Of a stretch of 64,000 nucleotides of DNA, positions 1-17,754 are shown piece after piece. The position numbers were made by a program, and so were the translations under genes. The stretch spans positions 1-64,000 of the IMG/VR virus record IMGVR_UViG_3300047445_000457; one strand, 5' to 3'. Position 1 is the first letter of the stretch, and every line of letters starts with the position of its first letter. The notes under the pieces are model-generated. The model ran no database searches and was not told where the DNA came from. It was given only the letters and a program-made list of their open reading frames with translations. The DNA comes from a virus.

Positions 1-3000
1 CAGGATCAGGGGACGGCCCGCTTCATCCGTTGCCTGGCTGTCACCGAACCAACGCCAGAACGCGCGGATCGCCTCATCCGTCGCCGCGATGGGGTTTCCC
101 TGGCTGTTCGTGATGTGCCGCTGCACGCCGTCGACGTCGATCATGCCAGGCTCAGAGGTCCGCGAGTGGTGCGCCTTAGCCTGGTAGTTGCTGATCGCCT
201 TCATGCGCGCGAAGTCGGCGCGGTCGCCGCCCATCGCGTCAATGACCTCGCCGGACGCCAGCAGCGCCGCATCCAGCCAGGACGGCGCGGTGCCCGATTC
301 CGGCCCCATGCCGAACAGCGAGCGCTTGACCCAATCCTTGAAGCGCTCCCACAGGGTTTGCCCCTCGTAGCGCTTGCCGGCCATGTAGTTTTGCAGCAGC
401 GGATCGGACAGCGTGCGGACGAAGAACTCGTCGGGGTTCCCGCGCGCCTCCTCTACAGCCAAGGCGAGATCGCGGTTTGCGAACTTTTCGCCCGCCGTCA
501 TCGAACGGAACTCTTCCCACACCGACGAGAACTGTTCCAGTGCTTTCGCTGCGGCCGGTGCCGACAGGCCCAGCATCTTGTCGTTGCCGCGCACCACGCC
601 CACCGAGAGCGAGCGGTAACGCGCAGCCACCACGACGTGCATCGTTTCGTGGAGCACGACTTCGTAGGTCAGGCCGCCGCGTCCCTCGGCCGTGAACAAT
701 TGCATGTGCAGCACCGGGGCCAGGCTCACCACGCCATGCACGTTCATGCGGCGGGTGTCGTCCACGGTCAGCATCAGCGAGCCGGTGGTCGGCAGCAGCT
801 TTTCCACCTGCGCGGCCAGTGCGCGCACCTCCTTCGGGCCGGTCAGGGCGATCAGCTTCATCGCCTGGCGCAGCGCCTTGATACCGTTCAGGCTGGTGGT
901 GCCGCTCTCCTGGCCATCGCGCAGCACCTTTTCGATACCTGGCGCGACGCGCTGCGACAGTACGTTCTGGTCGATCGGGCGGGCCTTGCCGATGGCGACC
1001 TCCCCGGCCTTCGCATTCGACGCGAGCGCGGCGGCAGCGGCGGCAGCAAGGAACTGGCGGCGGCTGACGTTGCGCTGTGCAGCGGAATCGCTCTCCAGCA
1101 TCGAAACCGCCGGCGCGTCGTCCAGGACCTGCGTGCCGTGGAAGGCGCGTTGCGCCATGACGTCCGGGCCTGACACTCCATCATTGTCATTCGCAGCCGG
1201 TGGCGGCGCCACAGCCGGCTGCGCCCCCGCCGGCGCCTGCACCTGCGGCGGCTCGAAATCCTTTTCCTCGTACACCGGGATGCCCTGCGAATCCTCGGCC
1301 TGCATGTACGGGATCACCACCTCACCGCGCTCGTCGGTGCCGAGCACGAACCACCCATCGTTGCTCCAGCGGTGGCCGGTCACGACGAACTCCTTGCCCT
1401 GCCAGTACACAGTGGTGTCGATCGGCGCGCCGGTGCGCAGCCAGTACGGCGGCGCCACCGGGTTCATGGTGATGTCGCGCTCCAGGTCGTCCAGTTGCTT
1501 CTGCGCGGCGGCCAGCTTGTCGCCCAGGTGGAAAGGCTCGCGCATCACGGTTTCGTTGTGGCCGAGGGCGCGCTCGTCGTCCTCGACTTCCTGTTCCCTG
1601 CGGCGCACCTGCTCGTCGCGCACCCAGCGCAGTTGCGCTTCCAGGCTCGGCAGGCTTGGGCCGTTGCTTTCCACCGTTTCGTTGCCGATGACCACGTACA
1701 GGTCCGGCTTGTCGGACCAGTTGCCCCAGCGAGCGTGCAGCGGCAGCCCGCCATACTGGCCGATCTCGACGTCCTGACCCTTGCGCAGCGTCGCCGCCAG
1801 CTTTTGCGCGATATGGTCGGAGGCCTCGCTGCGCTTGTCGAAGTGCTGGCCCTGCACCGTCATGCGGAAGGTGTCGCCGCGTTGGAGGTCGAGCACGGCC
1901 GCCGCCTGCTTTGCCGTCTCCCGCAGGTCCGGCAGCTCCCGGCGGTCACGCTCGATCTTCTGGCGCAGGCGCCTGGCCATGCTGGTGGCATCGGCCTGCG
2001 CCTGGGTGTGCAGGCGTTCGCGACTCTGCAACTGCTCCAGTTTCTTTTTCAGCTTCTCGCGCACCAGCACGCGCGGGTCGCCTGCGGCGTCGGCAAACGT
2101 CGATACCAGGTCGCTTTGCTCGTCGGAGGCGGCATCGCCCTCGATCACGCGCACCTCGCCCTTCGATTTCATGAACTCGGTAATGAAACGCTGCTTGATC
2201 GACAGCACCTGCCAGCGGCGGCCGTCCAGGCGGTCGGTCAGGTAGCGGTATTCCAGCACCGTGTTCCACTGGTTGCCCTGGCGGTGGCCGCGCCCGTTGC
2301 GCTGTTCCAGTTCGCCCGGCATCCACGGCGCGTCCATGTGGTGCATGGCGCGCAGGTTGCGCTGCATGTTCACGCCCACGCCCAGCGAGTCGGTCGAGCC
2401 GAACACGATGCGGATCTTCCCGCTGTTCATCGCGTCCGCGATTTCCTTGCGCTTGTCCTTGCTGGTCGAGCCGGTCACGGTGGCGATCTGCTCGCGCGGG
2501 ATCCCGGCCTGCACCAGACGCTCCACCATGTCCAGCATGGTCGAGAAAGCCGGATAGCTGACGGGCCGCTTCATGCCCTTGGGTCCCTCGGAGCGCGTCA
2601 CGGTCTTGGACATACCCTGTTCCATGAACACGACCTGATTGGCGTTGGGCGACCCGCGGTAGATGTCGATCAGGTTCTTCACCACGCGCGCCGGCTTGGA
2701 TGCCGGGTGCGGCTCCATTTCCGGCGTGCCTTCCAAGCCGGCATTGTTGATGGCGTCGACCAGGCGCACATCGAACGACGCTTTCTCGGCAATCGCGTCG
2801 TGGATGATCGGCACTTCCGGCGCACCGTCGCTCATCGCCTCCTTGCGCGCCTTCTTCGTCATCGCGCGCCAGGATCGTGCCAGCGCCTGCACTTGCTGGA
2901 ACACCCGCACCTGCTCGGGCGACATATCGGACGAGGTGTTCACCACCTTTTTATAGGGGCGGTCCTGCGCGTTCTCGGTGCGGCCGTCCAGCAGCTCGGC

Positions 3001-6000
3001 GCGCTCGGCGTCGGTCAGCGTCTTGTCGGCCATGGTCTTGCCATTTACGGCGCGCGGGCGCATTTCCGGCATGTCGTCGGCAAACACCACGTCCATGTAC
3101 TGGCCGATCATGCGGCGCAGTTCCGGTACATTGATGAAGGCCTGCAGGCGCGTCACGGCCTCGTATTCGCCGGTCGAGGACAGTTCGACGTCGTTCACCT
3201 CGCGGGCGAAGGAGCCGAACCAGCCGTCCCAATCCGCCAGCGCGGCGTCCGCCATTTCCTCCTGCATCATGTAGCGCATCATGTGGAACACCTCGGTCAT
3301 GGTGTTCGTGATGGGCGTACCCGTGAACAGGTGGACGTTGCCGCCGCTGTTCATGCCGCGCACATACTTGGTGAGGAAGGACATGGCGATGGATCGGTTC
3401 GAGGTCTGCGTCTGCAGCCCCTTCATCTTCATCTTGGTGGCGATCGGAGGCTTCTTGAATTCGTGCGCCTCGTCAACAAGAACCATGTCCACGCCCATGT
3501 CCTCAAAGGCCACGGAATCCTCGCGGCTGGCCTGCTGCGACAGCTTGCGGATCGTCTCCAGGATGCGCATGCGCTGCTTGACCAGTTCCTTGGCCGTGGG
3601 CGAGCGCAGTTTCTTCAGCGCGTCCTCGTCGTCCCACATATCCTCATTGATCGTGACGCCATCCTCGGCCGCCGCTTCCTTCGCAACGGTTTCCAGGTCG
3701 TTGATGTCGTCCTGGGCCATCGCCAGCAAGGTTTCTTCCTTGAAGCCGATGCGGTCGATCAGCGAGTGCGGGATCACGATCAGGTCCCAATCGTCATTGG
3801 CGATTTGCGCCATGCGGACCTTGATGTTGTCCTTCGACAGGTTATCGACGTACAGGATTTTCGCGGCTGGGTACATCATCTGGATTTCGCTGGCCACCGA
3901 CTTGCTGTTGGCGTTGTGCGCGAACATCAGCGGCTTCTTGGCGATGCCGTAGCGGCGCGACTCCACCGCGATCCCGCCCATGGTGAAGGTCTTGCCGGTG
4001 CCGACTTCGTGCGCGTTCAGGCTTTTTCTCGTCACCAGCGCGCGCCAGATCGCGTTGACCTGGTGCTCGCGCAGGTTGAACGGGCCGCGCCCGAGCGACA
4101 GGGCCATGCCCTGGAAGCCGAGGAAGGAGCCATCGAAATGCGGCGTAGCGAAGGAATTGCGCACCTCGTTGTATTCGCGCTCCAGCTCGACGCGGCGCAC
4201 CGGGTCGGCCCACAGCCATTCCCCGAATTTCAGGCGCATGTCCGCGATCTTGGCGTTGGTTTCCTTGGTCGCCGTGTCATCGACGTATGTGCCGCCAGTG
4301 ATCGGGTCCTCTTTCTTGATGGTGATGTTCTGGTTGGCGATCGCCGCGCGCACCAGGCGCTTGAACGTGACATGGCCGATGCCGAAGCCGCTGGAGGCCT
4401 CGGCGCGGTGGTTGAACGAGGCCGGGAAGCTGACCCTCCAGCGGCCAGCCTGGAAGTTCACGTCGATCTCGTCCGTGTTCTCCAGGCCCAGCATGTGCGC
4501 CACGTAGTCGGCATACACCGGCGCCGGCACCCAGGTGGCGCCCATCTGCGTCTCGATCTTGTAGTACGGAATATCGACGGGCAGCACCTTCTGCAGGGCG
4601 TCGATGTTGCGCTGCATTGCGGCGTTACCCTCTTCCAGCCCGGCCTTCGCCTGGCGCAGCTTTTCGCGCACGTTGCCCGACAAATACATATCGGAGGGGA
4701 TGAAGTCGCCCGCCGGCGTCTCGAAAGCGGCGCCGGCCTCGATCAGCTCGCGCCGCACGGTGGCCTCGTCCACCCCGGCCAGTTCCGCGATCTGCGCCGG
4801 CGACGGGTTCACCGAATCGTTACGGGCGAGCACGAAGGCATCTGCGACGCTCGGATTGGCCATCTTCCGGCTGCCGCGGATCGTGCTCTCGCTCAGGATC
4901 GCGGCCGGGCGGTAGGTGCGGGTGCCATCGCCGTTATCGACGTTCATTTCCAGCGCCGCCAGCGCCGGATAGAACGGGTCATCGATCTTGCGCAGGTAAT
5001 CCAGGCCGAACGATTCCGAGAAATGCCCGAAGTTCAGCTTGAACGCCTCGAACACATCGCGCAGGGCGGTGCGCTCGGCGCGGGCGTCGCCCTTGCGCTC
5101 GGCGTCGATCAGCGTGCCGTACAGGCGGCGCATGTCGATCAGGGCACCCAGCTGTGCCTCGCGGCGCGCGGTCGTCTTCGGGTCCTTCACGGCGTACTTG
5201 ACGACCTCGCCCGCCGGGGCCAGGTACTCACCCTGCACGATGAACAGGCCATCGTCGGTTTTCGTCAGCGCGCCGGTGCGGTCGCCCGTGTGGTTGGCCA
5301 CGTAGCTGATCTGCTTGCCGCGCGTGTCGGCCTCGTAGGCGTTCTCGGGCACCAGGTCCACGATGCGGCGCAGGTGCTCCAGCATGTTGTCGGGCCGGTT
5401 CACGACCATCGCACCGCTGGCGTACAACGAGCGGCCCTTGCCGAAGTCGATGGTGCCGATCACATGGTCCGGGTTGTTGTGGAAATACTCGTTGACGTTG
5501 ACTTCGGTGCCCTCTGGCGTGGCGTGCGGCTTGGACGTGATCCAGCCCTTGTCGGCCACGATGCCGGCCGGCTCCGCGCGCTTGCGCAGGATGATGATGT
5601 CGGTCACGACTTCCGTGCCGGCATATTCCTTGAACGCGCCGGACGGCAGGCGGAATGCGGCCAGCAGCTCGCCCTTGCGTGCCATTTCGGCGCGGATGGC
5701 GAGGTCTTTCTTGTCCATCGTGAACGCAGTGGTAATGCCCACCACCAAGCCACCGGGGCGGGTCTGATCCAGCGCCTTCAGGAAGAAATAGTCGTGCAGG
5801 GACGGCGACAGGCGGTTGTAGCGGCGGTCGGCCGGCGACACGTTCGCAAACGGCCAGTTGCCAATCACCAGGTCATAGAAGTTGTCGGGCGTCTTGGAGT
5901 GCTCGAAGCCCTTGATCTGGATGTTCGCCTGTGGATACAGCAACTGCGCCATGCTGCCCGTCACCTGGTCGAGCTCGATGCCGGCGCGCTGGCTGCGGCT

Positions 6001-9000
6001 GGCCAGGTCCGGCGGCATCATGCCGTAGAAGTTGCCGATGCCGATGGACGGCTCCAGCACGCGCCCGCCCGTGAAGCCCATGCGCTTGACCATATCCCAC
6101 ATGGCCAGCACGGTCGGCGGGTCGGTGTAGTGGGCGTTGATGATGGAGCGCTGCATGCCCTCCCACTCGGCCTGGCCGAGGTTGTTGCGCAGCCAGGCGT
6201 CGCGGTCCTCCCAGCCCTCCTTCGGCGCCGGACGCTGCCACGACCCCTGGAACAGGTCTTGGCCGAACGAACCCCAGCCGGTATAGCCGGCCAGCACTTC
6301 CTGTTCCTCGCGGGTCGGCGCGCGGCCGGCGTCGAGCAACTGGTTGCGCATCTCGAGCGCGGCGCGGTTCTTGTCGAAGCGGACCTTCTGGCCGCCGCCG
6401 ACGATTTTCAAGGGGTCGGCAATATGGAAGTCACCCGGCCCGGTGTCCGCCGGGCTGACGCTCGCCGGGTTCTTTACGACAGGGGCGGCAGCGCGCGATC
6501 CTCCACGTCCTGCTCCGGTTCCAGCATCAGGATTTCGCGCTCCGCCATTTCGCGGGCGTCCGTCACCGGCATCCCCGCTTGCAGCAGTTCCTTCTGACGG
6601 GTCCACATGCGCTGCTGGAGCACGTACGCCAGTTGCTTCGTTATTTGCAGGCGTTGCAGGTCCGCCCACAGCTTCGGGCTGTCGCGCTCCCAGGTCGCCA
6701 GGATGTGCCGGTCCAGTTCCCGGTTGTGCAGCGTCTCGTCGTTGTGGCGCAGCCGCAGGTACTCCTGCAGGATCTCCTTGCGCCATTCCTTGCTGGCTGT
6801 GTTCATCGGTCGTGGTTCCCTTGGGTTTCTGTGCGTTATCGGGCGATGCTGCACTATTTTGAGCGTTCACGCCAGCGGCCTGCGCAACGGCAGCCCGTGC
6901 GCGGTCGGCCAGCTCGGATGCCGGCAGGTTCACCGGCATCCAGCGGTTCTCGCCGCCGCTGAAACGCTGGCCCTCTTTCGTCACGCGCATCACGACACTG
7001 ACGCCGGATTTGGTGGACTTGAGGAAGCCCAGCGATTCGCCGCCAACAGTAATATAGATGCCGTGCTTCATGCCTGGGTGGAACATGGTCAGCATGGCAT
7101 CGCCGGAACCGGCTGGGCCGCCTTCGTTGACGCTGACGATCTTCGTCGGCTTGCCGTTGTGGTCCGTGTGCGGCACGAAGCCCTCGACGTCCAGCGCCTT
7201 GCCCACTGCTTTCAGGTAGGTGCTGGCGTCCTTGAGGAAAGCGTCCTTCATGCCCCCGCGCAGGCCGAAATCGGTCTGTTCGTTCTTGCCGCCGGGGATA
7301 GGCGTGTAGCCGTCGATGTACTCGACGCCCCAATCGTCGCGCAGGACCGGATCGGTGCCGGACTTTGCTGGGCGCGGTGCGGTCGGCTGCGTCGGCTTTT
7401 CGTCCTTCGCGGCCGCCACTTGCGCAGTCTTCGCGGCAGCATCCTCGGTCGCCATCGCGGTCATCTTGTCCTTGGCCCAGGCGATCGCATCTTCCAGCGG
7501 CATCAGGCCGGTTTGCCCGAGTCCGCGCCCTTCGGCGCGCCACTGGTCGCCTTCGCGGGTCAGGATGACATTGGCATACTCGTAGTCGGGCAGCCTTACC
7601 TTGATGCTGCCGTCCTTCTCGTACATCACCGCCAGGCCGGCGTCCTCGGCCAGCAGCCGTTGCCTGGACAGCGAGTTGACAATCACCTTCATGCCGGAAG
7701 GTGCGATATGCACGCTGGTTTCGCTGGCATCGCTTGCGGCTTTCGGCTCTGCCGCCTCTACCGCCGGCATTTTCATCCCGCGCCGCTGCATTTCCTTGGC
7801 GATCGGATCCGCGCGCTTCGGCAGTTCCTTATGCGCACGCAGCAGTTGCCCGTCCGTCATGGCCTTGACGGACAGATTGTTGAGTTCCTGGGTAGTCAGC
7901 TCGGCGCCGGTTTCCGCCGCCTTGACGACCCCTTGCCCCAGCGTGATCTGGCGGCTGGCGTCAATACCGGGATAGTCGCGGGTGTCGATCCCGAGTGCCT
8001 GGCTGGCGCGGTCTTCCGATGCTTCGCGCTTTTTCGGGTCGGCGTTCTTGTGCTCACGCGCCTGCTGGTAGCGGCGTGCGGCGAGCGAATCGAGCACCTG
8101 GGCGATCTCGACCAGTGCGCGCTTCGCTTCCTGAACCGCTTTCGGGTAGCGTGAGTCGATCTGGTCCTCGTACCTGAACCCGAGTTGCGCCAGCGTCGGG
8201 GCCAGTTCGTTCCAGCGCTGCACCGCCGCGTCAATGATCGGCTGCGGCAGCACAGGGGCCACGTTGGTGATCCGCGGCATGTCGGCAGCCGTGATCGGCA
8301 CAAAATCGACCGGCACGGCCGGCTTGCCCTCGCTCGCTCGCATGGCGATCGCCTGGCGCGCTTTGTCCTCGCGGAACGCCACGCCGGCCTCGTTCAGCCG
8401 GCCCTGGCCGGCGTCCATGTGTACGCCGGCCTCGATCACCCTGGCCATGTCGTCGTCGCCCGCGTCGCGCAGGTCACGCAGCATCTTCTCGATGCGTGGC
8501 GCGAACGGCGTCGACTGCCAGGCGCGCGCCGACGCTGCGGGTGCGGCCTCCGGCTCGTCTGCCGTCTCGCCCTTCTCTGCGGCCACCAGCTCGCGCAGCG
8601 CGTCATTCGCTGCGTCATCGTCCATATCACCGTAGTAAGAATCCTCCACGGCGCTGTTGATGTCGCCTTCGGTCACGCCGGCCGCCACCGCCTGTTCGAT
8701 CAGCTTGCGGTCGAGGCGGTCGTACTTGTTGGCGATCGCCATGGCCGGGTGATCGGCGGCGTTGTTGGCCATGAAGAAACCATAGCTGAAGCCTTCCGGC
8801 GTGACGGAACGGGCGTTCTTCGTCGCCTGGCTCTTGCCGCCGTACAGGCGGTGCATCTTGCTGCCCTCGGTCGGCTCGACCGGCGCCACCGGCAGGTCGC
8901 CGTTGAAGCGGCCCCAGATCAGGGTTTTCTTGGTGTACGGGTCGCCCAGGTGGTTCGGGTCGAACGACAGGCGCCACGGCGGCAGGCCACCCAGCTTCTC

Positions 9001-12000
9001 GATGCGGCCTACAGGGTTTTCCAGCGCCCAGACGGACGGCTTGAAGTATTCGATGGTGCGCAGGGTCTGGTGAACCAGGTTCACGCTGGCCACCGTGCGG
9101 CCGTCCGCGTCCTTGGCGGCGAAGTGGCGCGCGCCGGATACGGCGAAGTCAGTGCAGGGGCAGGCGGCCAGGATCGCGTACACGTCCATGCCGTCAAAGG
9201 AGCCGAACCAGTCGTTGAAGAACTCGGTCGAGAAGTTGTTGACGTCGCCCATTTCCGGGTCGTCCTGGATGTCGAAGCGGAATACCTGGTAGCCCGCTTC
9301 CTCCCACGGCTTCGACCACTCGCCCGACAGGTCGAACAGCGACAGCACGACCTTCTGGCTGTTGGCGCGGCGCGTGGCGTCATCTTCATACTGAGCCAGC
9401 GCGTGTTCTTTCCACTGCTCGATTTTTGCCTTGGCCTCGGCCGGGGTCATCCAGCCATGCCCGGCATGGTAGACCTTTGCCTTGTCGGCCAGGCGGACGA
9501 TCTCGCCATTCTTTGGCGGCTGGAAGATGTTGGTAACGACGTGCTCGCCGTCCATCATTTCCGCTTGGGCGGCGTTGAACTCGTCCACGATCTCGCCCAG
9601 CTCGCGGTCATCCACCCCTTGCAGGTGTTCCGGCGCAGTCGCGTTCGGGTGTGCTTCCGGCTTCTCGGACGGCTCGGCCAGTGGCTTCCATTCGGTAAAA
9701 CGATAGGTCGCCAGGCGCTCGGCGTTCTTGAGCGCTTCCAGCTTGTCCCAGCCGCCGGACGGCCCGGCACCGCCCTTGGTGTGGATGGTCTTGTCGCCGT
9801 CCTCCATCGACTTGACGACCCAGCCCTTGTCCGTCTTTTCGATCCACACCGTGCTGCCCGGTGCCCCGGCGTAGTCGAAGTGGGCGCGGTAGCCGGCATC
9901 GACGTCGCCAATGAATTCGTCCAGCGTGGTTGGCTCGCGCACTTCCAGCGGCTCGACCGTCTCCGCGGCGCGCGCACGCTTCTCCAGCGGACTCAGCGGC
10001 TCCACCGGATCCCGGCGCTGGTCGTCGCGCACCACGCGCGGCTGTGGCGAACCGTCTGCCATGTCCGACTGGATGATGTGCTTCATCGCCTGCGGGCGCG
10101 GGCGATCAGGCGTGATCAGCGCGCGCAGGCGGTTGGCGTCCGCCGATACGTTGCCGTCATAGTCGGCCGCCATCAAGGCGTCCAGGCGCGGCTGCAGGCG
10201 GGAGTCCGACACCGCGCCCAGGATATGCACGGCATGGATGTTGTCGCCGTACTTCCGCATCAGGTCCGTGAGCTCGTCATTCGACACCGCCTCGGCCTGC
10301 GACGGGATGCCGATGATCGGAGAAATGTCGCGCGCCGGGTCCATGCCCAGGTTGTGCATCATCTGCTCGTAAGCCTCGGTCAGCGACAGCTCACCACCTT
10401 GCAGCGGGATGATCGCCTGCAGGCCGTAGCCATTGATCGTCTCCGCATAGCGGGCGACCAGATCCAGCGAACCAGCCTGATCCCCCACGATGTCCGGCAT
10501 GACGAAGAAGGCGCGACCGTTCGCCATCCCGCCGCTGGCCTTGCTGATCGCGTGCGACAGGTCCTCGTAGCGCTGCATCAGTGCGTCGTGGTCCAGCTTT
10601 GCCGCCTCGGCCATTTCGCGCTGCTCGCGCTCCGCCACGCCCTGCTCCCGCACGTTGCGCATGAAGATCGAGAACGCGCCCGAATCAACGAACAGGTAGG
10701 CACCCGGCGCCGCTGCCAGCTGCTCGGCAATGCGCGGAACGGACACCTTCGACAGTTCCAGCATGGAAATGCCGACGTTCTTGCCGTTGCCGAACAGCTT
10801 GCTGTAGTCGCCCGGCGCACTCATGCCAGAGACGAACTTCAACGGTTGCTCCGGGGTGCCGTACACGCCCGGTTTGAACTGGCCGTTGGTGTCGACCGGG
10901 TTGCCGGCGTTGGCGTAGGTCTCCGCCAGCACACGGGCGCGCTCGCGCTCGTCCACGGCGGGCGGTTCCGGCGTCACCAGTTCGGAGGCCACCATGTCCG
11001 GCCCGCGCACGCGCGCATCTTCCTCAACCAGCCGGTTGTAGCGGTCCTGATCCATCAGCACGACCTGCTCGGACAACATATCGGGGTTCCGAGTCATGCG
11101 GATCTTGTTCTTCCCGATGTCGATGCCATTGAGGCGGTAGAGCGTGCCATCTTCCGCGTGCAGGACGTCGCCAGTCGCGGCGGATTTCAGGCTGACTTTT
11201 GCAGGCGCATGCTTCGCCTTCGCCTCGCGGTACTGTTGCAAGGTGCGCTCGGCATCCGCAATCTTGTCGTCGTACACCCATGCGTTGGCGGTCGCCTTGG
11301 CCTGCTCTTGCAGCCGCTTCAATTCCGCGACCTTCGCCTCGCCTGCGGCGATGAGTTCGTCCAGTTTAGCGAGCGCGTCGGCGCTCGGTGCCGCCGGCGC
11401 GGCCACCAGGCGCAGCACCTGGTCGTCCGGCATCGCCGCCACCACTTCCTCGCTGTCGGTGCCTTCGTGGTCCTCGGCAATCGCGTTGTAGGCCGCTTTC
11501 CAGCGGCGCGCGCTGATCTGGTCCACATGCGGGGCCACAGCCGGGTTGCCGCGCATCGCCTTGGCCGAAGCGCCGACCGCGGCGGCGAACGTGCGGAATC
11601 CCTTGCGGACCAGCAGCTCGATCACCTTCGACAGCGCCGGCAGCAAATCGCCTGTGCCGTGCTGCTTGCCGGTCATGTTCAGCTTGGAACCGAACACGTC
11701 GCCCAGCACATCGCCCAAGTGCCCCAGCGCAGCCTGCAGCTCGGCGTCCAGCAGGTCGATGGCGGGTTCGTCCGGCTTATCCGGCGCCTGCTCGGCCGCT
11801 ACTTCTGCCACGGTCGGCGGCGTCTCGCGCTTGCCGTCGATGAAGTCGTTGACCGCCTCGCTTTCCGAGCGCGGAATCGACGGATTGGGGGCGGGCTTCG
11901 TCCCGTCCTTGGTCGGGTTCAGCGCATGGCGGATTTTCGCCAGCGCTCCCTTCTTGATGTCGAAGCGGTCGAGGGCGGCGAGCAAGGACTGGCGCAGCAG

Positions 12001-15000
12001 GTCCGCCGGCACGCGGGCGTTCTCGGCCCACTGCGCGACCGCCTGCGGCAGTTCCTTTGCGTCGAAGTCGGGCTCTCTCGTCTCTTCGGCCACCTGTCCG
12101 GCCATTTCGAGGCCGAGCGCCTCGGCCCGGTCTTCGATCAACTGCTCGGGAGTCTTGCCCTCGTTGCGCCAGGCTTCCGAGTTGCGCGAGGGTCGCGCCG
12201 GTTGCGCTTCGGCCGGCGACTCGGTTTTCGCCGTTGCCCCCTCCGCCGCCTCGGCGCTCGGGAACTCCGGCACCACCTTCAGCAGCTCGCGGATCGGCGC
12301 ATCGAAGCGGATCACGCGCACCGGCTCGTCCTGCTCGTACTTGGCCAGCCACTGGTGATGGCCGTCGAGCACGTAGTCGTCGCTCGATACCAGGATCGCG
12401 CGGTCGCCGCCCTGGAAGTCCTTGGCCCGCTCGACCTTGGCGATGGAAAACTCGCGCTGGGTCGGCTTGAGCGTGTCCGGCTCCACGATGTCCTGTTCGT
12501 GCGCGATCCCGCGCCCCAGCAGGAATTGCGTCAGTGCGCCGCGGTGCTCCGCCTTGATCTGCGGCATGTCGGCGCGTGGGATGCCCAGCGTGCCGGTCTC
12601 AGGCGCGAATGCGGTCCATTCCTTGTCGATCCGGTGGCCGGCGAGGTCGTTCACCGGCTCGGCCGCCTGGCGGCGCTTTGACGGCCCGGTGTAGTCGCGC
12701 ACCTGGGCCGGCACGGTGGTATCGCCCAACTGGTTGAGCAGGAACGCGCGGTGGTGGCCGTCCTGCAAGTGCAGCGAGCCGTCCGGCAGTTCCTGGGCCT
12801 GGATCGGATGGGCGGCGGTGAAGGCGCGCAGGCGTGCTTGTGCCGCCGGGTCCGCCTTGATGGCGTCGACCAGTTCGCGCATCCCGGTGCCGGCCGGCAG
12901 ATTCAGGCCCGCCGCGTGTTCGAGCACGTCGCGGACCTGGCTTTCAGTCACGCCCTGCGTGCCGATCGCGCCGTTCGGGCGGCGGATCTCGGACAAAGCC
13001 AGGTCGATGGTGTCGGCCGGGTGCGGTGCGGTTTCGTGCGCCGCGTTCAGTGCAGCCTGTCCGGCCTCGGCATCCACTGCAGCCACAGCGCCCGCAGTAC
13101 CGGGTTCGCCAGCGGCGACAGCGGCGCCGGGTTGCGCATCCTGCGCTCCAGCGGCGTGTCCGTGCCCACCTTCATCAGTTGCCGATACTGCATGATCTGC
13201 CCCCTCGGTAGCGCCGGGAACAGGCGCGACGGCTTTCCGCCCACCTTTTACGAATGCCTTGAACGCCTCCATCAGCGGCTTGCGCTGCCCGACCGGCACA
13301 CCAGCCTTGTTCAGCGCCTTCCAGAACTCGGTGCCGTCCTTCGCCTGCTGCGCCAGCGGCAGCAGTTCCGGCGGCAGCGCCGGCGCGGCGGCGGGCTGGC
13401 CCTTGGCCACGGGCGCGGCGGCGGGCTTGCGCTCGGGCACGGCGTCCACCAGCTCGTTCGGGGCGGCGTATTCAGCCTCGGGCACGGCAAAGGCGTGGGC
13501 CAGCGCGCTGTGCCGCTCGATGTGCCCGATTTCCTCCGGGGTCGGCGCCAGGTTCCGATACCCCTCGCGGCGCAGGCGGGCCGTGAACGCCGCCAGCTTC
13601 CTTTGCGGCGGGGCTTCGCCCAGCTCGTTCAGCACATGGTCGAGCAGGTCCATGCGCGCGTTGCGCGACTGCATCGCCTGGTGCGCCTCGACGCGGCCGT
13701 GGATGGCGTCGAGCTCAGCCTGGCGTTTCAGGTGTTGCATGCGCAGGTAGGCCTGCTGTTCGGCAGCGGCGGCTTGCTCCCGCTCGGCGGCGATGCGGGC
13801 GTCGTCCTCATGGATGCGGCGTTCCTCGGACGCCTCGATGGCAGGCTCCAGCAGGCGCAGCGCATCCTGTGGCGCGGCCTTGCGCGGCGCGAGCGCGGCT
13901 TTTTCCCTCTGCAACTGCTTGTATTCCGCTTCCTCGTCGGCGGTGTAGCGGCGCGCCGGGGCGTCCGGCCCGCCGCGCCCGATCGCGCGCAACTGCTCAA
14001 GGCGGGCGTCGATCTGGGCGATGCGTCCCTCCGCGGTCGGCGTTTCCGGCGGCGGGTCCTGCGCGGTCGCAGCGGCGTCAGTGGCCGCACCGGCAGGCGC
14101 AGCGCCGGCATCCGGCGCTGCCTGGTCGCCCGGCAGCGGCGTCGGCGGGGTCTTGTCGAAGCCGTTTGTGGCATCCACCTGGCGGCGCACCTCGGCTTGC
14201 TTTGCCGCACGCACGGCGGACGGGTCTTCGCTGCCGAATGCCGCCTCGGCATCGTCGCGGCGCTGCAGGCGCGCGGCGTCGGCCACGTTCGGGTCGAGTC
14301 CCGGCGACAGCGGCGGGGCAGCAGTCGCCGCCTGGCTGGTGGCGGCTGCGTGGTGCGCGCGTTCGAGCGGCCCGGCATCCGGCGACAGCGGCGGCGGCGC
14401 GGCAGGAGCGGCCGGCGCCGTAGCGGCGGGCTGGGTCGCCGGCTGATGCGTCGCCGCCGGCTGGTGATTACCATGGAACCCAGCCATGACCCCGCCCTGC
14501 ACGCCGCCCACCACCATCCCGCTGCCGGCGGCGTTGCCGACCCCCTTCATGCGGTCCGGCTCGCCCTCGGCCACGTTGGTGAAATACTGTTCCTGGGCCG
14601 ACTGCGGCGCTTCCTCCGCCACGCCTTCGCTGAAGGCTTCCTTGCCGATCTTGGCCAGCCGGCTGCCCTTCAAGGTATGCGCGCCGGTCGCCAGGTCGGT
14701 AGCGGCATCACCGAACACGCGGCCCGCTCCCAGCCCGATCCCGGCCGTGAGTGCGCCGGCGGTGAGCGCCGGCAGCGCGTAATCCGTGTAATCGCGCCCT
14801 TTACCTTGCGCCTGGTCCGCGATCTGGCCGGCGCTCTGCGCGCCCTCCATGCCCGAGCCGGTGGCCAGCAGGCGCGTCGAATTGGCCTCGACCGCGGCGT
14901 CAGCGGCGGCCTTGCCCGCCTTGGTCTTGAGCGCCGCCGCCGCCGCCTCGGCGCTGGACTTGCCGGCGTCGGTTGCGAGCTGCGCCGCCAGCTTGCCCTC

Positions 15001-15495
15001 GGTGGTGGCCAGCGCCGCCCTGACGCCGATGCGGGCGGCGAGCGCGTTGGTCACGCCCATGCCGGCCAACATCCCCGGCGCCGATTCGGCAATCCCGCCC
15101 AGGATCGCGCGCGGGTTCTCCAGCGAGGCAATGGTGCTGTCAACGAAGCCATCGGCCTGCTGGACTTTCGCATCCGCCGCCTTCTGGCTGTCGCTCAGGT
15201 ACTCGCCCAGCGTTGCATTGGTGGCCTCGGGGTCGTAGCCGATCGCGCGCATACCCTTCCCCACCAGCCCGCCAGTCGCCAGGCTACCGAGGCCGACCAC
15301 GGATTGCCCGAGGTCGACCGCGCCCTGCGCCAGCTTGATGCCGACGTCGCCCGCCGTCCGCAGGAAGCCCGCCTGTTCCGGCTCCTTGGCTTGCGCCTCC
15401 CCCATCTGGGAGTCGAGCCATGCCTGGCCGGCATCGAAATCGAGCGTGCTGCGGTTATCGGTCAGGTAGGGGGCTTGCGGTTTCTTGGTGGCCAT
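1..15495 (-). CDS. Giant polyvalent protein, 3' end beyond the window
   Basis: Uninterrupted frame of 5165 codons from an ATG preceded by AAGGACCAAC; no stop before the edge. Visible parts: Ala/Gly-rich hydrophobic N-terminus (about 100-330) typical of phage internal virion proteins; Pro/Ala linker; two ParB-like modules (DGHHR near 911, LDGHHQ near 1043); a TGT/DpdA-like domain (DSGAF at 1604, IPLQGG near 1700, HILG near 1755); a C5-methylase-like domain (CPC 2112-2114, ENP 2159-2161); a low-complexity linker (about 2900-3005); an adenine methylase (LEPSIGIGNF from 3147, NWPF 3213-3216); an SNF2-type helicase (GTGK 3832-3835, DEAH 4008-4011, QRNGRGHR 4398); a Tat-like motif (SRRQFLA 4811); a zincin HETMH (4949-4953); and FWRWFGDS (5146), the usual opening of PolyVal ADP-ribosyltransferases. 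Known: such proteins are thought to be injected with phage DNA and counter host defence. It follows the ejection genes, which fits a virion role (inference). Confidence 0.9.
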   Translation of the reverse strand, partial: MATKKPQAPYLTDNRSTLDFDAGQAWLDSQMGEAQAKEPEQAGFLRTAGDVGIKLAQGAVDLGQSVVGLGSLATGGLVGKGMRAIGYDPEATNATLGEYLSDSQKAADAKVQQADGFVDSTIASLENPRAILGGIAESAPGMLAGMGVTNALAARIGVRAALATTEGKLAAQLATDAGKSSAEAAAAALKTKAGKAAADAAVEANSTRLLATGSGMEGAQSAGQIADQAQGKGRDYTDYALPALTAGALTAGIGLGAGRVFGDAATDLATGAHTLKGSRLAKIGKEAFSEGVAEEAPQSAQEQYFTNVAEGEPDRMKGVGNAAGSGMVVGGVQGGVMAGFHGNHQPAATHQPATQPAATAPAAPAAPPPLSPDAGPLERAHHAAATSQAATAAPPLSPGLDPNVADAARLQRRDDAEAAFGSEDPSAVRAAKQAEVRRQVDATNGFDKTPPTPLPGDQAAPDAGAAPAGAATDAAATAQDPPPETPTAEGRIAQIDARLEQLRAIGRGGPDAPARRYTADEEAEYKQLQREKAALAPRKAAPQDALRLLEPAIEASEERRIHEDDARIAAEREQAAAAEQQAYLRMQHLKRQAELDAIHGRVEAHQAMQSRNARMDLLDHVLNELGEAPPQRKLAAFTARLRREGYRNLAPTPEEIGHIERHSALAHAFAVPEAEYAAPNELVDAVPERKPAAAPVAKGQPAAAPALPPELLPLAQQAKDGTEFWKALNKAGVPVGQRKPLMEAFKAFVKGGRKAVAPVPGATEGADHAVSATDEGGHGHAAGAQDAQPGAAVAAGEPGTAGAVAAVDAEAGQAALNAAHETAPHPADTIDLALSEIRRPNGAIGTQGVTESQVRDVLEHAAGLNLPAGTGMRELVDAIKADPAAQARLRAFTAAHPIQAQELPDGSLHLQDGHHRAFLLNQLGDTTVPAQVRDYTGPSKRRQAAEPVNDLAGHRIDKEWTAFAPETGTLGIPRADMPQIKAEHRGALTQFLLGRGIAHEQDIVEPDTLKPTQREFSIAKVERAKDFQGGDRAILVSSDDYVLDGHHQWLAKYEQDEPVRVIRFDAPIRELLKVVPEFPSAEAAEGATAKTESPAEAQPARPSRNSEAWRNEGKTPEQLIEDRAEALGLEMAGQVAEETREPDFDAKELPQAVAQWAENARVPADLLRQSLLAALDRFDIKKGALAKIRHALNPTKDGTKPAPNPSIPRSESEAVNDFIDGKRETPPTVAEVAAEQAPDKPDEPAIDLLDAELQAALGHLGDVLGDVFGSKLNMTGKQHGTGDLLPALSKVIELLVRKGFRTFAAAVGASAKAMRGNPAVAPHVDQISARRWKAAYNAIAEDHEGTDSEEVVAAMPDDQVLRLVAAPAAPSADALAKLDELIAAGEAKVAELKRLQEQAKATANAWVYDDKIADAERTLQQYREAKAKHAPAKVSLKSAATGDVLHAEDGTLYRLNGIDIGKNKIRMTRNPDMLSEQVVLMDQDRYNRLVEEDARVRGPDMVASELVTPEPPAVDERERARVLAETYANAGNPVDTNGQFKPGVYGTPEQPLKFVSGMSAPGDYSKLFGNGKNVGISMLELSKVSVPRIAEQLAAAPGAYLFVDSGAFSIFMRNVREQGVAEREQREMAEAAKLDHDALMQRYEDLSHAISKASGGMANGRAFFVMPDIVGDQAGSLDLVARYAETINGYGLQAIIPLQGGELSLTEAYEQMMHNLGMDPARDISPIIGIPSQAEAVSNDELTDLMRKYGDNIHAVHILGAVSDSRLQPRLDALMAADYDGNVSADANRLRALITPDRPRPQAMKHIIQSDMADGSPQPRVVRDDQRRDPVEPLSPLEKRARAAETVEPLEVREPTTLDEFIGDVDAGYRAHFDYAGAPGSTVWIEKTDKGWVVKSMEDGDKTIHTKGGAGPSGGWDKLEALKNAERLATYRFTEWKPLAEPSEKPEAHPNATAPEHLQGVDDRELGEIVDEFNAAQAEMMDGEHVVTNIFQPPKNGEIVRLADKAKVYHAGHGWMTPAEAKAKIEQWKEHALAQYEDDATRRANSQKVVLSLFDLSGEWSKPWEEAGYQVFRFDIQDDPEMGDVNNFSTEFFNDWFGSFDGMDVYAILAACPCTDFAVSGARHFAAKDADGRTVASVNLVHQTLRTIEYFKPSVWALENPVGRIEKLGGLPPWRLSFDPNHLGDPYTKKTLIWGRFNGDLPVAPVEPTEGSKMHRLYGGKSQATKNARSVTPEGFSYGFFMANNAADHPAMAIANKYDRLDRKLIEQAVAAGVTEGDINSAVEDSYYGDMDDDAANDALRELVAAEKGETADEPEAAPAASARAWQSTPFAPRIEKMLRDLRDAGDDDMARVIEAGVHMDAGQGRLNEAGVAFREDKARQAIAMRASEGKPAVPVDFVPITAADMPRITNVAPVLPQPIIDAAVQRWNELAPTLAQLGFRYEDQIDSRYPKAVQEAKRALVEIAQVLDSLAARRYQQAREHKNADPKKREASEDRASQALGIDTRDYPGIDASRQITLGQGVVKAAETGAELTTQELNNLSVKAMTDGQLLRAHKELPKRADPIAKEMQRRGMKMPAVEAAEPKAASDASETSVHIAPSGMKVIVNSLSRQRLLAEDAGLAVMYEKDGSIKVRLPDYEYANVILTREGDQWRAEGRGLGQTGLMPLEDAIAWAKDKMTAMATEDAAAKTAQVAAAKDEKPTQPTAPRPAKSGTDPVLRDDWGVEYIDGYTPIPGGKNEQTDFGLRGGMKDAFLKDASTYLKAVGKALDVEGFVPHTDHNGKPTKIVSVNEGGPAGSGDAMLTMFHPGMKHGIYITVGGESLGFLKSTKSGVSVVMRVTKEGQRFSGGENRWMPVNLPASELADRARAAVAQAAGVNAQNSAASPDNAQKPKGTTTDEHSQQGMAQGDPAGVPAAAPQRRDAAQPGTGPAHPGDLGARQPEAVGGPATPANNEATGVRAPAAHVDPSEGTAASGDAGDGRPRNGGARNPDAGTGAGRGGSRAAAPVVKNPASVSPADTGPGDFHIADPLKIVGGGQKVRFDKNRAALEMRNQLLDAGRAPTREEQEVLAGYTGWGSFGQDLFQGSWQRPAPKEGWEDRDAWLRNNLGQAEWEGMQRSIINAHYTDPPTVLAMWDMVKRMGFTGGRVLEPSIGIGNFYGMMPPDLASRSQRAGIELDQVTGSMAQLLYPQANIQIKGFEHSKTPDNFYDLVIGNWPFANVSPADRRYNRLSPSLHDYFFLKALDQTRPGGLVVGITTAFTMDKKDLAIRAEMARKGELLAAFRLPSGAFKEYAGTEVVTDIIILRKRAEPAGIVADKGWITSKPHATPEGTEVNVNEYFHNNPDHVIGTIDFGKGRSLYASGAMVVNRPDNMLEHLRRIVDLVPENAYEADTRGKQISYVANHTGDRTGALTKTDDGLFIVQGEYLAPAGEVVKYAVKDPKTTARREAQLGALIDMRRLYGTLIDAERKGDARAERTALRDVFEAFKLNFGHFSESFGLDYLRKIDDPFYPALAALEMNVDNGDGTRTYRPAAILSESTIRGSRKMANPSVADAFVLARNDSVNPSPAQIAELAGVDEATVRRELIEAGAAFETPAGDFIPSDMYLSGNVREKLRQAKAGLEEGNAAMQRNIDALQKVLPVDIPYYKIETQMGATWVPAPVYADYVAHMLGLENTDEIDVNFQAGRWRVSFPASFNHRAEASSGFGIGHVTFKRLVRAAIANQNITIKKEDPITGGTYVDDTATKETNAKIADMRLKFGEWLWADPVRRVELEREYNEVRNSFATPHFDGSFLGFQGMALSLGRGPFNLREHQVNAIWRALVTRKSLNAHEVGTGKTFTMGGIAVESRRYGIAKKPLMFAHNANSKSVASEIQMMYPAAKILYVDNLSKDNIKVRMAQIANDDWDLIVIPHSLIDRIGFKEETLLAMAQDDINDLETVAKEAAAEDGVTINEDMWDDEDALKKLRSPTAKELVKQRMRILETIRKLSQQASREDSVAFEDMGVDMVLVDEAHEFKKPPIATKMKMKGLQTQTSNRSIAMSFLTKYVRGMNSGGNVHLFTGTPITNTMTEVFHMMRYMMQEEMADAALADWDGWFGSFAREVNDVELSSTGEYEAVTRLQAFINVPELRRMIGQYMDVVFADDMPEMRPRAVNGKTMADKTLTDAERAELLDGRTENAQDRPYKKVVNTSSDMSPEQVRVFQQVQALARSWRAMTKKARKEAMSDGAPEVPIIHDAIAEKASFDVRLVDAINNAGLEGTPEMEPHPASKPARVVKNLIDIYRGSPNANQVVFMEQGMSKTVTRSEGPKGMKRPVSYPAFSTMLDMVERLVQAGIPREQIATVTGSTSKDKRKEIADAMNSGKIRIVFGSTDSLGVGVNMQRNLRAMHHMDAPWMPGELEQRNGRGHRQGNQWNTVLEYRYLTDRLDGRRWQVLSIKQRFITEFMKSKGEVRVIEGDAASDEQSDLVSTFADAAGDPRVLVREKLKKKLEQLQSRERLHTQAQADATSMARRLRQKIERDRRELPDLRETAKQAAAVLDLQRGDTFRMTVQGQHFDKRSEASDHIAQKLAATLRKGQDVEIGQYGGLPLHARWGNWSDKPDLYVVIGNETVESNGPSLPSLEAQLRWVRDEQVRRREQEVEDDERALGHNETVMREPFHLGDKLAAAQKQLDDLERDITMNPVAPPYWLRTGAPIDTTVYWQGKEFVVTGHRWSNDGWFVLGTDERGEVVIPYMQAEDSQGIPVYEEKDFEPPQVQAPAGAQPAVAPPPAANDNDGVSGPDVMAQRAFHGTQVLDDAPAVSMLESDSAAQRNVSRRQFLAAAAAAALASNAKAGEVAIGKARPIDQNVLSQRVAPGIEKVLRDGQESGTTSLNGIKALRQAMKLIALTGPKEVRALAAQVEKLLPTTGSLMLTVDDTRRMNVHGVVSLAPVLHMQLFTAEGRGGLTYEVVLHETMHVVVAARYRSLSVGVVRGNDKMLGLSAPAAAKALEQFSSVWEEFRSMTAGEKFANRDLALAVEEARGNPDEFFVRTLSDPLLQNYMAGKRYEGQTLWERFKDWVKRSLFGMGPESGTAPSWLDAALLASGEVIDAMGGDRADFARMKAISNYQAKAHHSRTSEPGMIDVDGVQRHITNSQGNPIAATDEAIRAFWRWFGDSQATDEAGRPLIL
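6474..6806 (-). CDS. Nested gene in an alternate frame of the giant ORF; helical 110-aa protein
   Basis: Lies wholly inside the giant ORF in a different minus frame. ATG has AAGGGA 10 nt upstream; TAA stop. In this frame almost every third base is G or C, like real genes here, while in the giant frame the same stretch has A/T-rich third positions and encodes a low-complexity G/A/P/R linker. The protein has normal composition and looks all-helical (EWRKEILQEYLRLRH, then LWADLQRLQITKQLAYVLQQ), rich in W, L, R, E and Q. It loosely recalls small TnpV-type proteins of mobile elements, which I would not rely on. An upstream in-frame ATG at 6854 would add 16 residues but lacks a good ribosome site. 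Function unknown. Confidence 0.75.
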   Translation of the reverse strand: MNTASKEWRKEILQEYLRLRHNDETLHNRELDRHILATWERDSPKLWADLQRLQITKQLAYVLQQRMWTRQKELLQAGMPVTDAREMAEREILMLEPEQDVEDRALPPLS

Positions 15496-15513: not shown

Positions 15514-17754
15514 TCAGAGCGGCATGCTGGCGGACTCGCCAGCGTTGGCGGCTTGCTCTTTCGCCTTGGCGTACAGTCGTGCGGCGGCCTTGCGGATGGC
15601 CGGGTTCGGGTTGGTCTTGGCGATTTCCTGGTACTTGGCCGGACCGTCCAGCGGGCCGATCAGCTTTTCCTGTACCCAGGTTTCCAGGGCGGCGTCCGTC
15701 ATGCCGGTTGCGGCCGGCGCTGCAGCGCGCGGGGGCGTCTGTGCCGCATTCTTTTGCGGCGCAGGACCCGTGCCGCCTTTCCCCTGGTGCGGGGTGGATC
15801 TGGCCGCCACCGTCTTGTACGCCGCCTGCACCTTGGCGGCGTAGTCCGGGTCCTCGGCGTAGCCGCCCGTCTTCAACGCTGCGCCGAACCTGGCTGCGTC
15901 CGCACCTGCGCCGACTGCGCCGGGGTACTTGCGGCGGATCAGGTCAACATACTGGTCCGCGAACTCATCGGGGCTGGCGAAGGCGCGGTACTTGTCCACG
16001 CTGCCGGTCTGGTTGTCGGTCGCCTCGACGCCCTCGCCGGAGAAGTCCTTGATGTTGCCGAGGTTATTCGTGCCGGGGACGATGGATTGGCCCCAGCCGG
16101 TTTCCAGACCCCAATGCCCCAGCACTACGCTCGGGTCGACCCCGAGCGCTTCGCCAGCGCGCTTGGCGGCGGCACCGTAGCTGTTGGCATAGTCCGCTTG
16201 CTGCGCGTTCGGCTGGGCATCGCCCTGCTGCGGCGTGGCGCGGATCGCATGTTTCAGGTACTCGGCGCGCAGGCGGCGCAGCTCGGCCACCGGGTCCAGC
16301 ATCTTCGGGTCGTTGGCCGCTTTCGGGTCCTTGGCGGCTTTGGCGACGTTAGCGGTGGCCAGCGCCTTGAGCTGGTTGTTCACGCCCACCGCCACCCCGG
16401 CGCCGCTCATGGCGTCGCCGCCGTGCTGGCGGGCGTAGTCGATGCCGACCGTCTTGGCGAAGGTGAAGCCGTCGCCGTCGTAGACTTCGTTGCCGTCCTG
16501 GTCCTTGGCCTTGGTCGTGGCCACCAGGTAGGCGTCGGCCTCCTTGGTCCAGTTCGCGGCCTGCTCGGCGCTCTGGGCCTGCTTTACCTTGAGCGCCTCT
16601 TCCTGCAGGCGGCGCTGCTCGCGCATGTTCTTGGCCTGGTCCTCGCGGTAGCCGGCATTCGTGTCGGCGTTCTTCCTCGCCGCTTCCACCATGCCGGTCT
16701 TGTAGTCCGTTTCGCTCTTGCGCTGGGCCGCCTTATCCATCACCTCGAGGCGATCTTTCAGTGCCATCGTCTGGAACTGGTTGAGCGAGGTGTCGATGTC
16801 GGTGCGGCTGCCGTCATTGTTGGCAATTTGCAGCTTCCAGGTCGGCACTTCCATACCGTTCGGCAGCGTGGTCGTGGCCTGCTGGGGCGTGCCGACGATG
16901 CGCCCGCGATTCTCTCCGAGGCCGTTGTACAGGGCCATGCCGCCCGCGAAATCGCCATGCGCAAACGCCTCCATGGCCTGCGTCACGCCCTCGGTGCGCA
17001 TCTTGTTCAGCAGCTCGCGGGTCTGCACGTAGGCCTGCGGATTGACGTCGCCGCGCTTGGCAGCGGAGTTCAGCATGGTCTCGTACATGCCCAGCATGCT
17101 GCGCATGTCGCGCGGCTTGGGGATGCCGGCCGGCTGCTGCACCAGTGGGGCGACGTCGCCGGATGCGGGTGCGGTTGGTGCCACCTGTGCGATTGGTGCC
17201 GCCTGCGCAATCGGTGCTGCCGGTGCCGCCTGTGCAATCGGTGCTGCCGGTGCGGCTGGCGCAGCCGTCATGTCCGGTGCGATCGCGCGCTGCGGCGGCG
17301 GGCCTTCCAGTCCATCGACCAGCGGCGTCGCCAGCTTGCTTGCGGTTGCCATCGGGGCCGGGGTAATGTCCGCTGCCGGATCGGCCACCGGCAAGGTCTG
17401 CGGACCGCCATCATCCGGCGCAGTGCCGCCTGCCGCCGGGGCGGAGGGCATTGCCGGGGCGGGCGCCGCTGCGGCACTCGGCGCAGCCGGCGTGCCGGCG
17501 GTCGGTGCGGTGGCGCCGCTTGCGGGCGGATCCTGCCAGTAGTCGGCGGCGGTCTTCTTATTAGCGTCGCGCACGCGGTCGGCCTCGCTCCACTCGTAGC
17601 GCTGGCGCGAACGCAGTTCGTCCTGGTAGGCGCGGTCGGCCTTCTTCGCCTCATCCTCCACGCGGCGGCGCTCGGTGTCTTCCTGGCGGCGCTGCTCGTC
17701 GCGGTAAGCGTTGTAGCCGGCGGCGGCGCCGGTCAAGTTGATTCCAAAACCCAT
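15514..17754 (-). CDS. Internal virion protein with FlgJ-like peptidoglycan hydrolase domain
   Basis: 746 aa. Charged coiled-coil start (about 15-75), then a long Pro/Ala linker with repeated AAPIAQ units (about 150-200), a second helical charged region (330-400), and near the C-terminus (about 535-660) a glucosaminidase/lysozyme-like domain with GHWGLETGWGQS, a likely catalytic Glu in LETGWG, and the TNNLGNIK motif known from FlgJ and GH73 enzymes. Probably an ejected protein that opens the cell wall locally during DNA entry. It sits between two small virion-type genes and the giant gene, 18 bases upstream of the latter, so one late transcript is expected. The domain call is strong; the virion location is inferred from position and size. 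Confidence 0.8.
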   Translation of the reverse strand: MGFGINLTGAAAGYNAYRDEQRRQEDTERRRVEDEAKKADRAYQDELRSRQRYEWSEADRVRDANKKTAADYWQDPPASGATAPTAGTPAAPSAAAAPAPAMPSAPAAGGTAPDDGGPQTLPVADPAADITPAPMATASKLATPLVDGLEGPPPQRAIAPDMTAAPAAPAAPIAQAAPAAPIAQAAPIAQVAPTAPASGDVAPLVQQPAGIPKPRDMRSMLGMYETMLNSAAKRGDVNPQAYVQTRELLNKMRTEGVTQAMEAFAHGDFAGGMALYNGLGENRGRIVGTPQQATTTLPNGMEVPTWKLQIANNDGSRTDIDTSLNQFQTMALKDRLEVMDKAAQRKSETDYKTGMVEAARKNADTNAGYREDQAKNMREQRRLQEEALKVKQAQSAEQAANWTKEADAYLVATTKAKDQDGNEVYDGDGFTFAKTVGIDYARQHGGDAMSGAGVAVGVNNQLKALATANVAKAAKDPKAANDPKMLDPVAELRRLRAEYLKHAIRATPQQGDAQPNAQQADYANSYGAAAKRAGEALGVDPSVVLGHWGLETGWGQSIVPGTNNLGNIKDFSGEGVEATDNQTGSVDKYRAFASPDEFADQYVDLIRRKYPGAVGAGADAARFGAALKTGGYAEDPDYAAKVQAAYKTVAARSTPHQGKGGTGPAPQKNAAQTPPRAAAPAATGMTDAALETWVQEKLIGPLDGPAKYQEIAKTNPNPAIRKAAARLYAKAKEQAANAGESASMPL

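What the first reader, a model, noticed from the sequence alone, without database searches (positions are those of the whole stretch)
1..15495. Polyvalent giant protein of at least 5165 residues with at least seven enzymatic or DNA-handling modules
One frame holds two ParB-like modules, a TGT/DpdA-like domain, a C5-methylase-like domain, an adenine methylase fused to an SNF2-type helicase, a metallopeptidase and the start of an ADP-ribosyltransferase-like domain. The combination and size are exceptional, and its place after the ejection proteins suggests it is delivered into the host.
Basis: partly seen in the sequence, partly recalled or inferred. Interest (0 to 1): 0.8.

Follow-up and report, generated by a model that had tools for sequence, protein, structure and literature searches.

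The report
Giant DarB-like phage protein, TGT module
A phage gene makes one enormous, probably injected protein that chains several enzymes thought to protect the incoming viral DNA; the class is known, but this version also carries a base-exchange-type (transglycosylase-like) enzyme module that I found in no description of such proteins.

Summary
The 5165-codon frame is real: no internal stop, purifying selection in every module tested (dN/dS 0.12-0.35), and homologous to single ORFs of about 4,000-7,100 aa in viral contigs, including an intact 4,947-aa gene in a complete phage genome. It is cut only by the contig end; the best match for its C-terminus suggests about 1,100 more residues. It is a DarB-like polyvalent protein. 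The adenine methylase + SNF2 helicase core (PHROG 10089, E=0) occurs in all relatives; flanking modules are mosaic and change order. A C5-methylase module is confirmed. The metallopeptidase rests on conserved HExxH only. The ART domain is confirmed in relatives, but the window holds only about 9 of its residues. The two "ParB" modules rest on motifs; profile tests failed. The TGT/DpdA idea is upheld: the top 50 structural matches are TGT-family enzymes, and profile comparison with phage DpdA scores 63 against at most 19 in 100 shuffles. This TGT lineage is absent from 50,697 phage records but occurs in an LPD1 polyvalent plasmid protein and stand-alone on Pseudomonas and other replicons. Virion delivery is inferred from P1 DarB and JC1 gp69 (51 peptides in virions).

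The parts
1..15495 (-). Giant polyvalent ORF, 5165 codons, truncated by the contig end (no stop within the window)
14446..15495 (-). N-terminal Gly/Ala-rich, alternately hydrophobic region (res 1-350), similar to N-termini of other giant virion proteins
   Evidence: PHROG 30335, 2206 (virion RNAP) and 10089 weak matches over res about 28-593; low-complexity caution
12661..13038 (-). ParB-like candidate 1 (res 820-945, QDGHHR motif)
   Evidence: Pfam ParBc_2 E=0.013, below cut-off; found in no relative
12196..12663 (-). ParB-like candidate 2 (res 945-1100, VLDGHHQW motif); a widespread phage module
   Evidence: PHROG 11358 5e-37; 186 relatives in viral contigs; ParB fold not shown
9997..10875 (-). 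TGT/DpdA-like (beta/alpha)8 module, res 1541-1833; invariant D1604 (DSGAF), D1668 (PDxxG), HxLG 1757-1760, D1786 (DAN)
8545..9678 (-). C5 cytosine-methylase-like module, res 1940-2317, with catalytic PC (ACPCTDF) and ENP motifs
   Evidence: PHROG 757 5.9e-42; alignment A2
1450..7434 (-). DarB-like methylase-helicase dyad with flanking regions (res about 2688-4682)
   Evidence: PHROG 10089; present in all 21 relatives
5476..6408 (-). LPD36-like GWGS motif region and gamma-class adenine methylase (EPSIGIGNF; motif IV as NWPF)
2056..4083 (-). SWI2/SNF2-type ATPase (GTGKT, DEAH, QRNGRGHRQG)
1000..1065 (-). Internal Tat-like segment SRRQFLAAAAAAALASNAKA at the start of the metallopeptidase module
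   Evidence: PF10518 E=0.0007, below cut-off; twin Arg conserved in L004 and L015
121..999 (-). Putative zincin metallopeptidase (HETMH, DEFF motif)
   Evidence: conserved in 3 sequences; no Pfam or PDB profile match
1..27 (-). First about 9 residues of an ART-PolyVal domain, cut by the contig end
   Evidence: ungapped alignment to L004, whose next residues match PF18760 at 8e-7
15514..17754 (-). Neighbour: 746-aa protein with a glucosaminidase domain, probable ejection/peptidoglycan-breach protein
   Evidence: PF01832 1e-20; PHROG 3513
18021..18734 (-). Neighbour: virion structural / DNA-ejection family protein
   Evidence: PHROG 8003, 21132
21900..23975 (-). Neighbour: internal virion protein
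   Evidence: PHROG 511 6e-103

Best explanation
The gene encodes a DarB-like polyvalent protein of a podovirus-like phage. It is made late, packaged into the virion, and ejected with the DNA. In the new host the methylase-helicase dyad tracks along and protects the entering DNA from restriction. The other modules (TGT-like base exchange, C5 methylation, ADP-ribosylation, a possible self-processing peptidase) add interchangeable protective or host-modifying activities. Shown here: the single reading frame, the DarB core with intact helicase motifs, the C5 module, the TGT-superfamily fold with invariant candidate catalytic Asp residues, the module shuffling, and the position beside internal virion genes. 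Inferred from homologues: virion packaging and antirestriction. Inferred only: what the TGT module acts on (I think phage or host DNA, using host-made 7-deazaguanine), and that the peptidase cuts the protein itself.
For: Core family match E=0 and conserved motifs. Intact homologues in complete or long contigs. Purifying selection in all modules. Late-gene context after internal virion/ejection genes, and the same position in MT491207 before holin and lysozyme. Homologue JC1 gp69, 4,515 aa, found in purified virions with 51 unique peptides (PMC9144972). P1 DarB is packaged by an N-terminal signal and believed to enter the cell (PMC9024508). TGT module.
Against: No direct evidence of packaging, ejection or activity for this protein. 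Motif IV is NWPF rather than NPPY/F, so methylase activity is not certain. No QueC or QueD-type genes found in the 70-kb record, so a TGT/DpdA enzyme would depend on host precursors. ParB and metallopeptidase calls are weak.
Confidence: 0.82

Rival explanations
1. The TGT-like module does not modify DNA: like Cap10 of type IV CBASS it handles a 7-deazaguanine-protein conjugate, or it edits host tRNA, so it is a counter-defence or host-takeover effector.
For: Cap10 (9ntn) is among the top structural matches, tied with tRNA TGTs (Z 12.2 vs 12.9); Cap10 binds a 7-deazaguanine-modified protein (PMC11996544). No preQ0 synthesis genes were found in the record, unlike phages in which DpdA sits with Que genes.
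Against: Profile similarity to phage DpdA (score 63 vs at most 19 shuffled); fused to DNA-acting modules, next to the C5 methylase in L015 and L033.
Confidence: 0.3
2. The giant is a polyprotein: its metallopeptidase or a phage protease cuts it before or during packaging, so the modules work as separate proteins and the length means little.
For: Conserved HExxH module near the C-terminus; precedent: P1 DdrB processing (PMC5512222); a Tat-like segment exactly at the module start.
Against: JC1 gp69 peptides came from a whole-lane digest with 15.6% coverage, which does not resolve fragments; N4 vRNAP and some plasmid polyvalent proteins travel uncut.
Confidence: 0.3
3. The long frame is an artefact: frameshift, assembly fusion, or a chance open frame in high-GC DNA.
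For: High GC gives long spurious antisense ORFs here, e.g. 1741 and 1498 aa on the + strand; the record ends inside the gene.
Against: Homology over all regions to single ORFs in independent contigs and an isolate genome; dN/dS 0.12-0.35.
Confidence: 0.02
4. Much of the protein is structural (tape-measure or ejection-tube like) and the enzyme-like domains are decayed.
For: N-terminal Gly/Ala-rich region resembles giant virion proteins; motif IV variant NWPF.
Against: Catalytic motifs of helicase, C5 and TGT modules are invariant or nearly so across relatives and under purifying selection.
Confidence: 0.06

Closest known systems
P1 DarB (archetype of the methylase-helicase dyad)
   Same: LPD36-like region, gamma adenine methylase and SNF2 ATPase in the same order; late gene; antirestriction setting
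   Different: P1 DarB is about 250 kDa; this one exceeds 5,165 residues and adds C5 methylase, TGT-like, peptidase and ART modules
DarB-like giants of Bcep22-like phages (JC1 gp69, Bcep22 gp75, BcepIL02)
   Same: 4,500-aa class, same core (about 29% identity), gene after virion genes and near the lysis module; JC1 gp69 proven virion-associated
   Different: They lack the TGT module (no phage record matches it)
MT491207 (Pseudomonas phage vB_PaeM_USP_18) gp31, 4,947 aa
   Same: 53% identity over the core, shared ParB-like candidate 2; ART-PolyVal domain
   Different: No TGT or C5 module; has LPD23
Polyvalent proteins (Iyer et al. 2017, PMC5512222)
   Same: Several unlike enzymes in one chain, phage late context, ART-PolyVal, methylase-helicase
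   Different: No tRNA-guanine transglycosylase or DpdA domain is mentioned in the main text
DpdA of phage 9g and actinophages
   Same: TGT-superfamily barrel, DSGAFS and DxxGD motifs
   Different: Free-standing, with Que genes, in actinophages beside a ParB-like gene; here fused, no Que genes found

Membership tests
Polyvalent proteins (PMC5512222) | Two or more unlike enzymatic domains in one polypeptide | tested here: met
   DarB core, C5 methylase, TGT-like in one ORF
Polyvalent proteins (PMC5512222) | Phage late/virion gene neighbourhood | tested here: met
   Internal virion protein, ejection and structural families upstream
Polyvalent proteins (PMC5512222) | Transferred into the host with the DNA | not testable with these tools
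   Inferred from JC1 gp69 and P1 DarB
DarB-like antirestriction (PHROG 10089) | Profile match over the methylase-helicase core | tested here: met
   E=0, 1584 bits
DarB-like antirestriction | NPP(Y/F) motif IV of the adenine methylase | tested here: inconclusive
   NWPF in the window and in 20 of 21 relatives, NVPF in L022
DarB-like antirestriction | Protects DNA from type I restriction | not testable with these tools
   No experiment
TGT superfamily | TGT-type (beta/alpha)8 barrel | tested here: met
   Top 50 structural matches are TGTs, with TGT-family Cap10 among them, Z 12.0-12.9; model pTM 0.72
TGT superfamily | Catalytic Asp pattern at the ends of the barrel strands | tested here: inconclusive
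   D1604, D1668, D1786 invariant in 7 diverse members; equating them with TGT D102/D156/D280 is from memory and only roughly supported by the aligned ranges
Classical tRNA TGT | C-terminal zinc site with Cys residues | tested here: not met
   The module has no Cys at all; the feature itself is from general knowledge
DpdA | Sequence-profile homology to phage DpdA | tested here: met
   hhalign Prob 94.7, score 63; shuffles max 18.9, reversed 21.6; 137 columns only
DpdA | 7-deazaguanine in DNA | not testable with these tools
   No mass spectrometry; QueC and PTPS not found in the record
C5 cytosine methylase | PC and ENV-type motifs, family profile | tested here: met
   PCTDF and ENPVGR invariant; PHROG 757 6e-42; PF00145 at cut-off
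ddrB-ParB / ParB | Match to PF18763 or PF02195 | tested here: not met
   No match
ParB fold in a broad sense | ParB/Srx fold | tested here: inconclusive
   Only the DGHH motif; hhalign Prob 1%
MPTase-PolyVal | Match to PF18818 | tested here: not met
   other clades of this peptidase exist, HExxH conserved
ART-PolyVal | Match to PF18760 | tested here: inconclusive
   Domain cut by the contig; found in five relatives, four above cut-off, L004 just below

The most novel reading that the evidence does not exclude
A virion-delivered, TGT-superfamily enzyme fused to the DarB machine exchanges bases in (or otherwise deazaguanylates) the entering phage DNA or a host defence factor at the moment of entry, using host-made 7-deazaguanine; the same lineage serves conjugative plasmids. 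This would be a base-exchange step performed by an injected polyvalent protein, which I found in no paper.
Probability: 0.35. Interest if true: 0.75.

Novelty: new variant of a known kind. Interest (0 to 1): 0.55.

Why it matters
It adds a nucleobase-exchange-type enzyme to the known tool set of injected antirestriction giants and shows that the same unrecognised TGT lineage is shared by phages and conjugative plasmids, both of which must protect DNA on entry. It also shows that these giants evolve by swapping whole modules around a fixed methylase-helicase core, which makes the function of each module testable by deletion.

Tried and rejected
Frameshift or assembly artefact: rejected. Circular closure of the contig: the last 6.7 kb has no homology to the giants, so the missing end is not there. 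The 92%-identical L003 as model for the missing C-terminus: rejected, because its C-terminal part is different; L004 matches instead. First TGT model with 5 sequences: pTM 0.53, generic TIM-barrel matches; repeated with 8 sequences. Foldseek alone ranks epimerases first even for the better model; the TGT call rests on the re-alignment plus the DpdA profile match. DpdA profile comparison with the close sequences only gave just the DSGAFS motif and failed globally; it became significant only after adding plasmid relatives. ParB by profile, PDB search, and comparison with actinophage ParB genes: not shown. Metallopeptidase by PDB or Pfam profile: nothing. Conserved partner genes of stand-alone TGT relatives: no partner common to most loci.

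Full report
OBSERVATION. The window is bases 1-64,000 of a 70,226-bp linear viral record. The minus strand has one open frame from 15,495 to base 1: 5165 codons, ATG start, no stop, open at the contig edge. Its composition is that of coding DNA throughout (GC3 0.70-0.91). High-GC antisense ORFs of 1,498-1,768 aa also exist, so length alone is not proof; homology is. A scan of viral contigs with residues 4066-4665 gave 20 loci. In them the same regions lie in single ORFs; those not cut by a contig end are about 4,000 to 7,100 aa. The complete genome of Pseudomonas phage vB_PaeM_USP_18 has an intact 4,947-aa version directly before holin and lysozyme. dN/dS against five relatives is 0.12-0.35 in every module compared (simple NG86 estimate).

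TRUNCATION. The gene's 3' end is not in the record: the last 6.7 kb of the contig has no homology to the giants. The closest overall relative, L003 (92% in the first search query), has a different C-terminal part. L004 matches residues 4811-5165 at 83% without gaps and continues for 1,137 residues, starting with an ART-PolyVal domain. The window holds about 9 residues of that domain.

WHAT IT IS. PHROG 10089 (DarB-like antirestriction) covers residues about 2690-4680 with E=0; Pfam Helicase_C gives 3e-12. The GWGS motif region, methylase motif I and the helicase Walker A, DEAH and QRxGRxxRQ motifs are conserved across 21 relatives, with small changes; methylase motif IV is NWPF in 20 of them and NVPF in the most distant one, not the NPPY/F described for the family (PMC5512222). 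The C5-methylase module (residues 1940-2317) has PHROG 757 at 6e-42 and invariant PC and ENP motifs.

TGT MODULE. Residues 1541-1833 gave no Pfam, NCBIfam or PDB sequence hit and no match in 50,697 phage records. Eight loci in viral contigs carry it, all in long ORFs. A model from 8 sequences (pLDDT 71, pTM 0.72) is an eight-stranded barrel. Re-alignment of Foldseek's candidates fills the top 50 places with tRNA-guanine transglycosylases (Z 12.0-12.9), the TGT-family protein Cap10 of CBASS among them. Foldseek's own order favours other TIM barrels, so I sought independent support. In plasmid records, 43 matches were found: a 2,206-aa LPD1 polyvalent protein of a Cupriavidus plasmid, in a region with traW, and stand-alone 260-365-aa proteins on Pseudomonas, Microvirga and Azonexus plasmids; 24 further loci lie in bacterial genomes. 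With five of these plasmid sequences added, profile comparison with 11 phage DpdA-family proteins gave probability 94.7 and score 63, against at most 18.9 in 100 column shuffles and 21.6 reversed. DSGAF, PDxxGxQ, HxLG and DANxxR are invariant in 7 diverse members. The best viral structure match is another uncharacterised ART-PolyVal-like phage protein. The module lacks any Cys, so it has no classical TGT zinc site. No QueC or PTPS gene was found in the record, so precursors would come from the host.

WEAK MODULES. The two ParB-like stretches carry DGHH motifs; the first has a sub-threshold ParBc_2 hit and no counterpart in relatives; the second is a widespread phage module, in giant ORFs and stand-alone in Ackermannviridae-type phages, but its ParB fold is not shown. 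The metallopeptidase rests on HExxH and a DEFF motif conserved in three sequences.

MODULE SHUFFLING. Only the DarB core is in all relatives. The TGT module is in five of the first 22 records; the C5 module is in six of the aligned proteins, window included. In L015 and L033 C5 precedes TGT, in the window and L004 TGT precedes C5. Other blocks also change place between the window, L004 and L037. One contig with overlapping ends shows two alleles of its giant gene that differ by an in-frame 531-bp piece; an assembly error is not excluded.

HOW IT PROBABLY WORKS. The gene follows internal virion, ejection and glucosaminidase genes. The homologous JC1 gp69 (4,515 aa) was found in purified virions with 51 unique peptides (PMC9144972). 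P1 DarB is packaged through an N-terminal signal and believed to enter the cell (PMC9024508). I infer that this protein is packaged, ejected with the DNA and protects it against restriction by the DarB dyad, with the other modules as exchangeable additions. What the TGT module modifies is open: DpdA suggests DNA (PMC6884629), Cap10 suggests protein (PMC11996544).

COMPARISON AND NOVELTY. Polyvalent proteins as a class are known (PMC5512222); its main text does not mention tRNA-guanine transglycosylase or DpdA, and a full-text search for the combination found only a BREX paper that uses the terms separately. Supplementary lists could not be read, so prior mention is possible. I rate it a new variant of a known kind.

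Noticed in passing
window 1000-1065 (-); L004 and L015 at the same module start: A Tat-signal-like segment (RRQFL + Ala-rich stretch + AxA) sits inside the giant, exactly at the start of the metallopeptidase module, and is conserved in the two relatives that share the module. Unexplained.
   Followed up: partly
L006 giant ORF, residues about 2827-3193: A 367-residue intein-like insert interrupts the Walker A motif (GTGK/...VVTHN/TFTMGG) of the helicase.
   Followed up: partly
L035 and L036 (two ends of contig IMGVR_UViG_3300037467_001303): The contig's ends overlap by 5.3 kb at 99.9% and then differ by an in-frame 531-bp insertion in the giant gene, as if two module alleles coexist.
   Followed up: partly
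window 37073-40473 (-): Two further stand-alone DNA methylases (N6/N4 type and C5 type) lie between portal and major head protein genes.
   Followed up: no
L057 5941-6978 and upstream: A stand-alone TGT-like gene on an Azonexus plasmid lies directly after a PRTRC cluster with a ThiF-family protein; a possible link to protein conjugation.
   Followed up: no
L047, L048, L049, L051, L052: In actinophages DpdA genes follow a ParB-like gene in a Que cluster, echoing the ParB-like/TGT neighbourhood in the giant.
   Followed up: partly
GQ357915 gene 75 (L163) and Ackermannviridae (L164): The ParB-like candidate 2 domain is a stand-alone protein in many large myoviruses, including PhiW-14, known for hypermodified thymine.
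   Followed up: no
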